Shown here: positions 15,169 to 55,555 of the stretch, piece by piece
Position numbering within the stretch: position 1 is the first letter of the stretch
Layout: the number at the start of each line of letters is the position of its first letter
Source of the DNA: Longimicrobiales bacterium
Lineage (GTDB): Bacteria > Gemmatimonadota > Gemmatimonadetes > Longimicrobiales > Gaopeijiaceae
Length of the DNA: 64,000 bases
Direction of reading: 5' to 3'
Assembly (NCBI GenBank): GCA_028822645.1
Contig: JAPKDG010000004.1
Span: 1 to 64,000 of the forward strand
Notes under the pieces: generated by a model
Seen by the model: only the letters and a program-made list of their open reading frames with translations
What the model was told of the DNA's origin: nothing
The model's database searches: none
Position numbers and translations under genes: made by a program

Positions 15169-18100
15169 ATGAAACTTCAGTCGATCACATTAAAGGGCTT
15201 CAAATCATTTGCTGATCCGACTGTCATAAATATTCATTCTGGCATAACTGCAGTTGTTGGGCCTAATGGCTGCGGAAAGTCAAATATCAGCGATGCGATT
15301 CGATGGGTTTTGGGTGAACAGCGTCCATCTGTAGTCCGGGGTGGGAAGATGGAAGAAGTGATCTTCCAGGGATCCCGTGACCGCCGACCAGTAAACCGTG
15401 CATCGGTTGTTATGACAGTGTCGAATGTGAATAAGATCCTGCCTATTGCATTCGATACAGTAGAGATTGGACGGACAGTCTATCGCGATGGTGGCAGCGA
15501 TTACTCGATCAATCGTTCTGAATGTCGTTTGCGTGATGTGGCTGATTTGTGTCGAGATACTGGACTGGGAGCCAACACATATTCGGTAATAGAGAACCGA
15601 ATGATAGATGAGATTTTGTCGACCAGAGCCGAAGATAGGCGCACTCTATTTGAGGAAGCAGCAGGAATCGGAAAATATAAAGATCGCCGACGGGGAGCAT
15701 TGAGGAAACTTGAACAGACTGACCAAGACTTAATTAGGCTAGAGGATGTCATCGGAGAAGTTGAAACAAAAGTACGGAGTTTGAGTCGACAAAAAGGTAA
15801 GGCCGAGCGTTATAAGAATTTGAGAGATCGCAGGTTGATCGTTGAAGTGAATGTAGTCCGTGAAGAAACCACGCATTTACAATTAAGACTCGAAGAACTG
15901 GACTATGCCCTTGAATCAGAAGGTGAGACGGCCCTGGATGCCACTTCTGGCTTGAGTGTTGCAGAAACTGTTTATGAAAAACTCAAGTTGGAAGAAGTGG
16001 GTGCTGAGCGTTATGCCAGAGATGCCGAAAATACATTAGAGACGATCAGACTCAAACTGACCGAATGGGAACGTGATCTTGCTGTTGCTGAAGAACGTCG
16101 CAACTATGGCGATAGGAGATTGACTCAAATTGGGGATACGAGAAGTGACCACAGGAGTAAAGTGGAATTGTTGGTCTCTGAACAATGTAAATTAGAGGAA
16201 AACGTCGGCAATCAAAATAGTATCTTGGTGAACTTAAAAAGTGATCTAGAAATAGAAAATCAGCTGGTAACCGATTTGAAAACGGAATTGGAAGACTTAG
16301 ATGGGAGAGTGCAAGAAGCTGACAACCAAGAATTGAACTTTGCAAGAAAACTAGCCTTGTTGACTGGAGAAATAGAATCGACCAAGGGACAATTGGTCGA
16401 ATTTGAAAGAGCAACTGGTGAGGTGTCCAAGAAATTGGCCAGTGCATCTGATGCACTAACTGAAATAGTGTCTCAAGGAGATTTGTTCGAAAATAGAATA
16501 GCTCCTTTGGAGGAAAACCTGAAGTTGGTGAAGGAACAACTGCGGGCAACAGAGAATAATGTTTCTAACTCTAAATTGTTGTTGCAATCTTCAAGACAGA
16601 AGTACCTGGACGCTATTGGATCTGCAAGTTCAGTCAAAGCAGAGTTTCATGTGTTGCAAGATATAGACCAAAATAAAGAAGGGATTGATGATGCAGTAAA
16701 GGCCTGTCTAGAGTTGCATGATCATGGAGTTCTAGGGTTGATTACGGATTTTATGGAAGTTTTGCCGGAAATGGATATAGCTGTTGAGTCTTATTTGGGT
16801 TCATTCTGCCAAGCTGTTGTGGTCAGAGACCATGACAGCGTAAAAACAATCTCTCGTTGGTTCTTGAATGAATGGAAGGGAGGAGGAGGATTAATTTTAC
16901 TTCCTTGTGATCAAGTCCCTCAAGTAGCAGATGGAACTCTACTGAACGCCATCTCCACTAGAGGGAAGGGGGCAAGCTGGGTAAAAGCACTTGTTGGATC
17001 TGCGGACATTCTGGACACACCAGACATACAGGGTGAATCTGTTAGGACTACTGTATCAAGAGACGGAGTGGTTATCGATACTATTGGATTTGTCAGGGTC
17101 GGGAACCTTTCTAATAATCAAGGTGTCCTTGAACGCAAGAACAGGATTGTCCAGTTAAAGGATTCTCTAGAATCTAAGCAGACTATCGTTGCTGAAACAG
17201 AATTAGCGGTCATAGAAGCGGAAAAATATTTAAGTGATTCAGAAAGTATCCTTGAGACCAAACGGATTCATGTGGCTGAAGCGGAAGATCAATTACGTCG
17301 GACAAAGTCAGAAATTAAAAGTCAGGTCACTCTGCGTACTACGGTAGATTCACATCATGAAGAACTTGTTAGAAGACTTGAAGGGACCAAGGTAGCTAAA
17401 GTAAAAGCAGCAGAGCGAATAATTGATTTGGAGAAAGTTAAAAGAAAATCAGAGTTGGAGAAAACTAATATTTTAGTGGCCAGAAAATCTTTAGTAGAAA
17501 ACTTGAAAAGTCTACAGATTGAATGGGAGACACACAGATCAAAAGAGAATCAACTTGAAGTGGCAGTTGTTAGGAATGAAGTAGAAATCCAAGGATTGGA
17601 AGAAAAATTAAGAGACCTACGAAGAGAAGAGAACGAGGGAGAGGAAAGGTTGAGTAAACTGTTGTCTGAGGAAATGGGTTTACAGGAAGAGATGACGAGT
17701 GTGCTAAAGCTCAAAGAAGAAGGGGCGATTGTCATGGATACACTCTTCCAGGAAAATGATCGAGCTAAGACAGCGGTGACCGAGAAAAGGATTGCACTCG
17801 AAGTGGTGGTGAGTGATGTACAAAAGATTGAGAAGGAAGTCAAATCTTACAGAGAAGCAGAAAGAAAAACTTCGGACCGTCGTCATACACTTGAACTTGA
17901 ACGTCAAGAAGTCATTAGTCGCCAAAGTATCATAAGTGGAAGATTGGAAAGTGAATGGGGTCGATCATCACAGGTCCTTCTTGAAGAAATTGATGTGATT
18001 CACACTGATAATGAAGATCTCAAAAGAGAACTAGAGGGAATCCTAGAGAAATTGAATCGGATTGGTCTGGTCAATATGCTGGCTGTGGAGGAACACGAAG

Positions 18101-52431: not shown

Positions 52432-53703
52432 CTATTGCAATGATGGGTTGACCTTGGTTATACGTTGCAAGTGCGTGTCATCCCAAGCTGTTATAAGTAA
52501 TTGTTCAGCTTTTGATGTGAGTGATAGTCCTCGACGACTCATGACTTTATTAGTCATCTCGAGAAAAGCAGGGAGCTCATATTCCCCTAGTTTATCACAA
52601 GTTCCCCAGCTAAATGCTGGTATTTCAGAAGGAGACATACCCCCTCCGAAAATGTTTGTGCCACAGCCGATCACGCAGCCCGCTGGAAGTAGGCTGCCGA
52701 TACCAGTTTTGACGTGATCGCCAACAAAGATTCCGAGTTTTTGATTTCCTGTATTAACAAGACCCTTTGGAGTAGAGACTTTGATTTCACCATAGTTATT
52801 CTTGAGGTCACTATTTGTCGTAAGTGCACCCAAGTTGACCCAACTTCCGAGATAGGAATTTCCGAGATAACCATCGTGTGCCTTGTTGGTATAATCCATG
52901 ATCACAGAGTTGCTGATTTCTCCCCGCAACTTACACCCTGATCCTGCCGTAAAATTTTTCATATAACCACCTAACAGACGTGTTCCGGGCCCAATGAAAG
53001 CGGGTCCTGCTATGTGAGTGAAAGCATGTATGCGTACTCCCGGAGAAATAAAAATAGGGCCAAGGGTACTATCCAGATGAACCCTTGGATCCATATTAAC
53101 GTCCTCTCGTATAGAAATGAGATGGTCCCCTAAGCAGGTCACCCCGTCAGGGAGCAGAGGGCTCGCTTCAGGTTGGCTAAATGACATTGCGTTCAAGTCT
53201 CTGCCTATTTGTTTCCCGTTTTCTAATACTAAATCCCAGAGGTCATGTAAGACACTGCCAGATAATTGTAAAACCGGAAAAGCCTTTGGCGAATGTGAAG
53301 GATTGAGTAAATCAAGGTTCTCAGGTCCAGAAAAACCTCTTGGAAGGAACCATCCAACGGTTTCTCCATCCATAAGTAGTGTTTTGGGAGACGTATCCAA
53401 GTGGAGCCGGGAAATGATTGCACTATCATGGTCGCTGAGATCCGGAACTGCGCGACTTAAAAATAGAATAAGGGGTTCATCGCTGGTAATGTCTTCTGCC
53501 TCTACTACTGAGGGAGTGTCCGGCTCATCGAAGTGATGTAGGCTCTGGCTAGTTATATAACCCAGGCACTGTCCTCCCCAAAAAAGTTCGCCTCTTTCTC
53601 TCATGGACATGCAACCGAGCGTAAGCTCTCCAGCAGGTCTGGTTAAAGTAAATGGACACCAATCCTGGGCTTTCTGGTCGTCAAAAAGGTAGAAATTTAG
53701 CAT
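52432..53703 (-). CDS. GlmU-like sugar nucleotidyltransferase/acetyltransferase (alternative bacterial GlmU type)
   Basis: This protein of about 423 residues resembles the alternative GlmU-like family common in Bacteroidetes. The N-terminus (NFYLFDDQKAQDWCPFTLTRPAGEL) is typical of that family's nucleotidyltransferase half. The second half has the hexapeptide-repeat left-handed helix (IFISPGVRIHAFTHIAGPAFIGPGTRLLGG, in pieces) ending in a CVIGCGTNIFGG segment. It would make UDP-GlcNAc from GlcN-1-P for peptidoglycan and bacillithiol. It follows directly on the interrupted mannose-1-phosphate guanylyltransferase (ATG 53703 is 2 bases past that TGA stop; TTG 53709 is alternative). Confidence 0.82.
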   Translation of the reverse strand: MLNFYLFDDQKAQDWCPFTLTRPAGELTLGCMSMRERGELFWGGQCLGYITSQSLHHFDEPDTPSVVEAEDITSDEPLILFLSRAVPDLSDHDSAIISRLHLDTSPKTLLMDGETVGWFLPRGFSGPENLDLLNPSHSPKAFPVLQLSGSVLHDLWDLVLENGKQIGRDLNAMSFSQPEASPLLPDGVTCLGDHLISIREDVNMDPRVHLDSTLGPIFISPGVRIHAFTHIAGPAFIGPGTRLLGGYMKNFTAGSGCKLRGEISNSVIMDYTNKAHDGYLGNSYLGSWVNLGALTTNSDLKNNYGEIKVSTPKGLVNTGNQKLGIFVGDHVKTGIGSLLPAGCVIGCGTNIFGGGMSPSEIPAFSWGTCDKLGEYELPAFLEMTNKVMSRRGLSLTSKAEQLLITAWDDTHLQRITKVNPSLQ

Positions 53704-53705
53704 AG

Positions 53706-54794
53706 TCAAGAATCCGGGCCAGCACTCGAATCTGGCAGGCTGTTGAGTAGAGTCTTAAGGTCTGCAGCCAGGTTTTTAGTAGTCGCCAAGATGACGTCTC
53801 CTGACTGTATCAGGACAAGGTTCTGGATTCCATAGGTTATGAAGGTAACATCTTCTGAATAGATCACACTGTTTTTGGTGTCTAATAGCTCGCAATTCCC
53901 CATGACCGCATTACCATTTCCATCTGTTTCTCTAACGCGTGTCAGTGAACTTCAAGTGCCTACGTCGTCCCACTGAAAATTCGCTAAAACTGTAGCTATT
54001 CGAGAGCTCCTCTCTAGAATGCCTTCGTCCACAGTCATAGTTGGTATATGCTCAAAGAAATCGATTGGTCTATTTTGGCTGAGGTAGAACATAAAGTCGG
54101 AGATCTCTGGTGTAGTGGAATAGATTTCATCAATAAAAACTTTTGCTTTCCAGATAAAAATTCCACTATTCCAAAGATATCCCTTTTTTAAGTATTCCTT
54201 TACTGATTCAAGGTCGGGTTTTTCCTTGAAGGAGTTGACCTTGAATGACTTCGTCTCTCCTTGTATTGCGAAACAGTCGCCTGGTTCAATATAGCCATAG
54301 CCCGTTTCTTCACGGTCGGGATTAACTGAGATAGTGAAAAGTAAGTCATGGGTTTTCAATACAGATACTATGTCTCCCACCAGACTTAGGAATTTTTCTT
54401 CAGGTTTGATAATATGGTCTGCATGAAGTGAAAGAATCACTGCCTCGGGGTCCAAGTTGTAGATGTCCCAGGAAGCCCAGGTTAATGCAGCAGCGGTTCC
54501 ACGCACTTGAGGTTCGATTTTGAATGATTCGGCTGGAAGTTCTGGCAAGAGACTCCGCAAACTCTCATTAAGATGGGATCCTGCCAGAATTCGGATACGT
54601 TCTGGAGGTACCAATTTTAAAGCTCTGTCGACTGTGTCGACTATCATGGGTTGACTTGTCGCTAATGGCAATAGTTGTTTTGGCTTCAGTTTTGTGCTGG
54701 CCGGCCAAAATCTGCTACCGGCCCCACCCGCTAGTATGGTCACATATAGATGTTTATTGTTGCTGGGGGCTACACCTGATTTGAATTGTGCCAA
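53706..54794 (-). pseudogene. Mannose-1-phosphate guanylyltransferase family gene interrupted by one in-frame TGA
   Basis: The reading frame for a GT-A nucleotidyltransferase (GDP-mannose synthesis type) runs 362 codons, the family's usual length. Codon 281 (53952-53954) is TGA where the family has Trp, in QWDDVGT-stop-SSLTRV (compare WDDVGSW). The N-terminal part is intact: ILAGGAGSRFWPAS, LSLHADHII, FKEKPD and LWNSGIFIWKA. The part after the stop (GNCELLDTKNSVIYSED) also keeps the family pattern in the same frame. The lesion may be real and recent, a sequencing error (TGG to TGA), or a rare readthrough. TGA is a normal stop in neighbouring genes. Confidence 0.9.
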
Positions 54795-54970
54795 GGAATT
54801 TTTCTTCTGAGGATGTGGTGAGAATGAGTTGGACTTATAATTTGGATGATAAATGGATTGCCTCTTCAGGGAAAGTAATTAGGCGGTGTTACTATAATGA
54901 AGCTATAAAGCGTTGACAGTCTTACCTCCTTCAAATAGCGTTGGATTTAATACAAATTAAGGTGCAACCA

Positions 54971-55555
54971 GTGAAAAGAATCAACCGTACTTTTCGAATG
55001 TCGGTGTTTTTAGGATCGACTTTCATTATATCAGTGAATTTGACGAGTTGTAGTAGGGATAATCCGTTTGATCTAAAGTGGACGGAAGCCAATCCTGACA
55101 CAGCATCAATATATTCCCTCTCACGCCCGGAACTAAACCTTCCATCTGGCTTTGATCTTGTGGAAAGGACGGTGGTGAAGATAGAAGATCCCAATGCCAC
55201 AGGAAATTGGGATTTTCTGCTCGATAGTCGGAATGGAGAGCTAGTATTTGTACCTCCCGCTGTATTTGGTATAGAGAGCGAAGCAAAGATGATGCGTTTG
55301 CCGGGTTTGAATTTTGACGAAGTCCTTGAAGCTCCAAGCGACACATCTTTTTACTCCAGCGACGAAGTGGTTCCCGTGGAGACAGGTTCTGTCTATGTAG
55401 TCCAGACACATAGGGGTAAAAATAAATTTGGTATGTTGTGTGTTTTTTATGGAAAGCTACAACCTCTTGAGAGTAGATTAGCCAATGGTACTGTTACATT
55501 TATATTTGATAGAAATGAGCTTTGCGGGGAATTGAATCTTGTGCCCAAAGACTGA
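54971..55555 (+). CDS. Putative lipoprotein of unknown function
   Basis: This is a 194-residue exported protein with a lipobox-like NLTSC near residue 26 after a hydrophobic segment (SVFLGSTFIISV). The mature part is about 165 residues with beta-like patterning and an SxPELNLPSGFDLVE region. I recognise no family. I place the start at GTG 54971 with AAGG 8 bases upstream; an upstream frame start at 54941 is possible. It lies 9 bases before serS and may be co-transcribed with it. Confidence 0.68.
   Translation: MKRINRTFRMSVFLGSTFIISVNLTSCSRDNPFDLKWTEANPDTASIYSLSRPELNLPSGFDLVERTVVKIEDPNATGNWDFLLDSRNGELVFVPPAVFGIESEAKMMRLPGLNFDEVLEAPSDTSFYSSDEVVPVETGSVYVVQTHRGKNKFGMLCVFYGKLQPLESRLANGTVTFIFDRNELCGELNLVPKD

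What the first reader, a model, noticed from the sequence alone, without database searches (positions are those of the whole stretch)
53706..54794. One TGA replaces a conserved Trp codon in an otherwise intact manC-like gene
The 362-codon frame keeps the family pattern on both sides of the stop at 53952-53954. The stop lies at the Trp of WDDVGSW-like motifs. A single G-to-A change from TGG explains it. It may be a recent pseudogene, a consensus error, or translational readthrough. The C-terminal part would otherwise be lost, probably abolishing or altering GDP-mannose synthesis. The GlmU-like gene downstream is translationally close.
Basis: seen in the sequence. Interest (0 to 1): 0.65.

Follow-up and report, generated by a model that had tools for sequence, protein, structure and literature searches.

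The report
Lone nonsense codon in manC gene
The genome's only gene for making GDP-mannose carries one stop codon where every checked relative has a tryptophan codon; this is most likely an isolated recent mutation or a sequence error rather than a recoding trick, even though this bacterium does appear to recode UGA as selenocysteine in other genes.

Summary
On the minus strand, codon 281 of a 362-codon manC frame is TGA (53952-53954), in WDDVGT*SS. All 30 relatives aligned codon by codon have TGG there. In a wider search of the order, no other listed ManC has an internal stop. It is the genome's only ManC, in the same gene order as the intact copy of its closest relative.

The standard code holds: RF2 is present and 25 of 59 window genes end in TGA. 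Unexpectedly, the genome also appears to decode UGA as selenocysteine: it has tRNA-Sec(UCA), SelA, SelB-like pieces, and a Prx-like selenoprotein whose in-frame TGA and SECIS-like hairpin are conserved in relatives.

The 81 codons after the stop show no sign of decay. No other gene broken by a stop or frameshift was found among 223 orthologues.

Verdict: an isolated TGG-to-TGA change, either a recent nonsense allele or a consensus error; reads are needed to tell which. The truncated protein keeps nearly the whole catalytic domain, so 'probably abolishing' is too strong. Ordinary; low interest.

The parts
53706..54794 (-). manC-type mannose-1-phosphate guanylyltransferase frame, 362 codons plus terminal TGA, interrupted once
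53952..53954 (-). in-frame TGA in place of the conserved TGG (Trp) codon, followed by A (UGA-A)
53955..54794 (-). 280-codon open part upstream of the stop: nearly the whole nucleotidyltransferase domain, with GGAGSRFWP at residue 23 and FKEKP at residue 189
53709..53951 (-). 81 codons after the stop: C-terminal beta-helix region (PF22640, 26.2 bits, just below its 27-bit cut-off), not visibly decayed
52432..53703 (-). GlmU-like sugar nucleotidyltransferase/acetyltransferase (TIGR03991); its ATG begins 2 nt after the manC terminal stop, so translational coupling is likely (inferred)

Best explanation
This is an isolated nonsense substitution (TGG to TGA, i.e. C to T on the + strand at 53952) in a single-copy manC that was functional until very recently. 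It is either a real recent or segregating null or hypomorphic allele, or a consensus error in the assembly. It is not a recoding signal. If the TGA is real, ribosomes mostly stop at codon 281 and release a 280-residue product with nearly the whole catalytic domain but without the C-terminal beta-helix that pairs subunits. UGA followed by A, the context most often misread by tRNA-Trp, would give a small amount of full-length protein with the normal Trp. Shown: the TGA, its absence in relatives, no sign of decay downstream, the standard code. Inferred: the recent origin, the residual activity and the leaky readthrough.
For: TGG in 30 of 30 aligned relatives. No other listed internal stop in the search of the order, where 145 of 154 genomes have a match. 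Same gene order in the closest relative G002, with an intact manC. The C-terminal part evolves no faster than in G002: mean identity to outgroups 0.315 against 0.333 for the C part and 0.481 against 0.482 for the N part; G000-G002 differences after the stop are still concentrated at codon position 3. A census of 639 G002 ORFs against 727 kb of this genome (223 matched, 78,629 aligned residues) found no other gene broken by a stop or frameshift; the hits were shadow frames, and one apparent frameshift proved to be a tRNA gene. RF2 is present; 25 of 59 window genes end in TGA. No bSECIS downstream of the TGA.
Against: Reads are not available, so mutation and error cannot be separated. manC is kept in 95 of 97 high-quality genomes of the order and a gmd-like gene that would use GDP-mannose is present (below the family cut-off), so a true loss would be somewhat surprising. 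The clean census argues against a generally error-ridden assembly but does not exclude one error.
Confidence: 0.92

Rival explanations
1. Consensus or assembly error: the organism has TGG and the gene is intact (one of the two branches of the best explanation).
For: Single-copy gene with no decay after the stop; kept in nearly all relatives; G-to-A/C-to-T is a common damage-type error (general knowledge); translational coupling to the GlmU-like gene would make a real premature stop costly (inference).
Against: No other disrupted gene in 78,629 aligned residues, so the consensus is generally clean.
Confidence: 0.45
2. Real recent nonsense allele (young pseudogene or hypomorph), fixed or segregating in the sampled population (the other branch of the best explanation).
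For: Same sequence evidence; transitions are the commonest spontaneous change (general knowledge); two same-order genomes of 92% and 96% completeness lack a match, as does the less complete same-genus G001, so the gene may be dispensable at times; the ATG start of G002 is not conserved here and a TTG start must be assumed (weak).
Against: Strong retention in the order; no second lesion in the coding frame.
Confidence: 0.47
3. Selenocysteine insertion at the manC UGA.
For: The genome has tRNA-Sec(UCA) at 65.3 bits, SelA at 524.8 bits, SelB-like pieces at two contig ends, and a Prx-like selenoprotein with conserved TGA and SECIS-like hairpin.
Against: No bSECIS: the best candidate meeting the loop, G and spacing rules has +0.1 kcal/mol against the required -7.5 or less (rule from PMC13188914). 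The site is Trp in all 30 aligned relatives, never Cys or Sec, and is not a redox site.
Confidence: 0.01
4. Functional leaky readthrough by tRNA-Trp, making a short form and some full-length form under selection.
For: UGA-A is the context most misread by tRNA-Trp in E. coli (PMC5289835); the downstream part is not decayed.
Against: Not shared by any relative; no selection for a dual product is visible; +4 A is expected by chance about one time in four.
Confidence: 0.04
5. Genome-wide reassignment of TGA to Trp.
For: One TGA at a Trp site.
Against: RF2 present; 25 of 59 window genes end in TGA and 207 TGG codons are used; the only UCA-anticodon tRNA found is tRNA-Sec.
Confidence: 0.002

Closest known systems
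ManC-type mannose-1-phosphate guanylyltransferase (TIGR01479 N-terminal part; Thermotoga maritima GMP 2x5s, Thermus 2cu2)
   Same: Catalytic motifs, domain order, Trp at the stop column in both of these
   Different: One in-frame TGA at that Trp; no fused isomerase domain, so below the TIGR01479 cut-off
UxxC Prx-like selenoprotein family (as in PMC1088965)
   Same: In-frame UGA in the same genome, also followed by A
   Different: The selenoprotein's TGA is conserved across relatives at a Cys-type redox site with a SECIS-like hairpin; the manC TGA has none of these
Ordinary single-substitution nonsense pseudogenes or sequence errors in draft genomes
   Same: One transition, unique to one genome, rest of gene intact
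   Different: Nothing distinguishing seen

Membership tests
ManC mannose-1-phosphate guanylyltransferase | NTP_transferase domain with GGxGxR signature and F-x-EKP motif | tested here: met
   PF00483 123.4 bits; GGAGSRFWP and FKEKP present
ManC mannose-1-phosphate guanylyltransferase | C-terminal beta-helix in the translated product | tested here: inconclusive
   Encoded after the stop; PF22640 26.2 bits against cut-off 27; translated only if the TGA is read or is an error
Bacterial selenoprotein | Sec machinery in the genome | tested here: met
   tRNA-Sec, SelA, SelB-like pieces
Bacterial selenoprotein | bSECIS hairpin 16-37 nt after UGA, G in loop, energy at most -7.5 kcal/mol | tested here: not met
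   Best manC candidate +0.1 kcal/mol; the genome's own Prx-like control gives -8.3
Bacterial selenoprotein | Cys or Sec in homologues at the UGA site | tested here: not met
   Trp/TGG in 30 of 30 relatives
TGA=Trp genetic code | No RF2, TGA not used as stop, tRNA-Trp(UCA) | tested here: not met
   the assembly holds no detected tRNA-Trp of either kind
Recent nonsense pseudogene | Stop confirmed in reads | not testable with these tools
   No reads available

The most novel reading that the evidence does not exclude
A retained UGA-A codon in manC sets a ratio between a short form without the beta-helix and a small amount of full-length guanylyltransferase through misreading by tRNA-Trp, in a bacterium that also decodes UGA as selenocysteine.
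Probability: 0.03. Interest if true: 0.5.

Novelty: already known. Interest (0 to 1): 0.12.

Why it matters
Little on its own. It is a useful worked example: in a genome that appears to decode UGA as selenocysteine, a lone TGA at a Trp site can be told apart from recoding by conservation, SECIS and homologue tests. If the TGA is real, GDP-mannose supply, and through coupling perhaps the GlmU-like gene, would be lowered in this strain.

Tried and rejected
Internal stops first listed for G015 and G025 ManC proved to be terminal stops overrun by the alignment. Genetic code change: rejected. Selenocysteine: seriously considered once tRNA-Sec, SelA and a Prx-like selenoprotein were found, then rejected for manC for want of a SECIS and of Cys homologues. 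The bSECIS rule is only weakly specific (50 of 300 random TGA sites pass), but manC fails it anyway. An apparent frameshift in the census was a tRNA gene. The genome-contig scan found only one distant homologue. One protein-family call failed on coordinates, so the SelB pieces rest alone. No structure prediction was run: solved homologues already place the domain boundary.

Full report
OBSERVATION. On the minus strand of the window a frame runs from a TTG at 54794 to a terminal TGA at 53706-53708, with one in-frame TGA at 53952-53954, codon 281. The context is VLANFQWDDVGT*SSLTRVRETDG. Read through, the protein is a ManC-type mannose-1-phosphate guanylyltransferase (PF00483 E=1.5e-35; TIGR01479 E=7e-64, below its cut-off, which is set for the longer fused enzyme). 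Its closest solved relatives are the Thermotoga and Thermus enzymes. It is the only such match in the 2.04 Mb, 99-contig assembly.

CONSERVATION. I aligned 30 relatives, from the same genus to the same order. Every one has TGG (Trp) at the stop column. In a search of the order (145 of 154 genomes with a match) no other listed ManC match has an internal stop. The nearest relative G002, about 61% identical, has an intact manC in the same order of neighbours: serS-like, small ORF, manC, glmU-like, MBL-fold, rseP-like (gene names other than manC and glmU from ORF lengths and my own reading). In 2cu2 and 2x5s the column is also Trp; the Helicobacter pylori enzyme 2qh5 has Phe, so the residue is aromatic rather than strictly Trp.

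CODE. TGA is a normal stop here: 25 of 59 non-overlapping window ORFs end in TGA, 207 TGG codons are used, and RF2 is present over its cut-off. tRNAs read from the assembly include no tRNA-Trp with UCA. No tRNA-Trp was found at all, nor tRNA-Phe or tRNA-Asp, which points to assembly gaps.

SELENOCYSTEINE, FOUND ON THE WAY. A coding-potential scan of 727 kb of the genome turned up one other convincing in-gene TGA, in an AhpC/TSA protein with FYRGKW*RYC. The genome has tRNA-Sec with anticodon UCA at 65.3 bits against a gathering score of 47 and SelA at 524.8 bits. SelB-like matches end two contigs and together cover the model: 2-171 at the end of C12 and 191-576 at the end of C13. The Prx-like gene has a TGA in its relatives too, at the same place in those I aligned. 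A 6-7 bp hairpin with a G-rich loop lies about 20 nt after the TGA in nearly all of them, as the published bacterial SECIS model asks (PMC13188914). UxxC Prx-like selenoproteins are a known family (PMC1088965). So UGA recoding very probably does occur in this organism.

DOES IT APPLY TO manC? No. Homologues have Trp, never Cys. The rule passes 50 of 300 random TGA sites, so failing it is informative while passing it would not be.

AGE OF THE STOP. The 81 codons after the stop are open. Mean identity to the outgroups is 0.315 for this genome and 0.333 for G002 in the C part, and 0.481 and 0.482 in the N part. G000-G002 differences after the stop are concentrated at third positions (0.33, 0.13, 0.64), as in the N part. 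The change is therefore very recent, or not real. With only 63-79 comparable residues after the stop this test excludes old decay, not recent decay.

QUALITY OF THE CONSENSUS. Of 639 G002 ORFs, 223 had a good match in the 727 kb sample (78,629 aligned residues). All stops found lay in shadow frames, and the one apparent frameshift was a tRNA gene. The manC TGA is a lone event in an otherwise clean sequence. This fits one consensus error or one recent mutation equally well.

CONSEQUENCE IF REAL. The 280-residue product keeps the GGxGxR and F-x-EKP motifs and nearly the whole nucleotidyltransferase domain, and loses the beta-helix, which in the Thermotoga enzyme mediates dimerisation (PMC9168903). 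A plant GMPase lacking its C-terminal 139 residues kept about a third of its activity, so partial function is plausible. UGA followed by A is the context most prone to misreading by tRNA-Trp in E. coli (PMC5289835), so a little full-length protein with the normal residue may be made. The GlmU-like gene starts 2 nt after the manC terminal stop, so an early stop could lower its translation. These consequences are inferences.

VERDICT. Confirmed observation, ordinary explanation. I split the probability about evenly between a real recent nonsense allele and a consensus error; programmed recoding is unlikely.

Noticed in passing
L104 (G000:C26:1-16237), TGA at 15371 on the minus strand: Prx-like (AhpC/TSA) selenoprotein candidate, FYRGKW*RYC, with a SECIS-like hairpin; TGA at the same site in relatives from many genera of the family.
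   Followed up: yes
L187 (G000:C43:29000-32000), minus strand: A second, distant Prx-like protein with FYRGRW*PYC and an in-frame TGA; a same-genus relative (G001, L135) shows the same motif with TGA.
   Followed up: partly
L111 (G000:C12 end) and L113 (G000:C13 end): The two halves of a SelB-like factor lie at the ends of two contigs, suggesting that these contigs are neighbours.
   Followed up: partly
G000 assembly: No tRNA-Trp, tRNA-Phe or tRNA-Asp detected; several contigs begin or end in tRNA genes, as if the assembly breaks there.
   Followed up: partly
L033 (G002:C3:216000-224000): The closest relative's assembly carries many single N bases (141 in 8 kb), including within manC near the homologous codon, though that codon itself reads TGG.
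   Followed up: no
window 54941-55555 (+): A 204-codon ORF, divergent from manC, whose N-terminus looks like a lipoprotein signal, with no Pfam or NCBIfam match.
   Followed up: no
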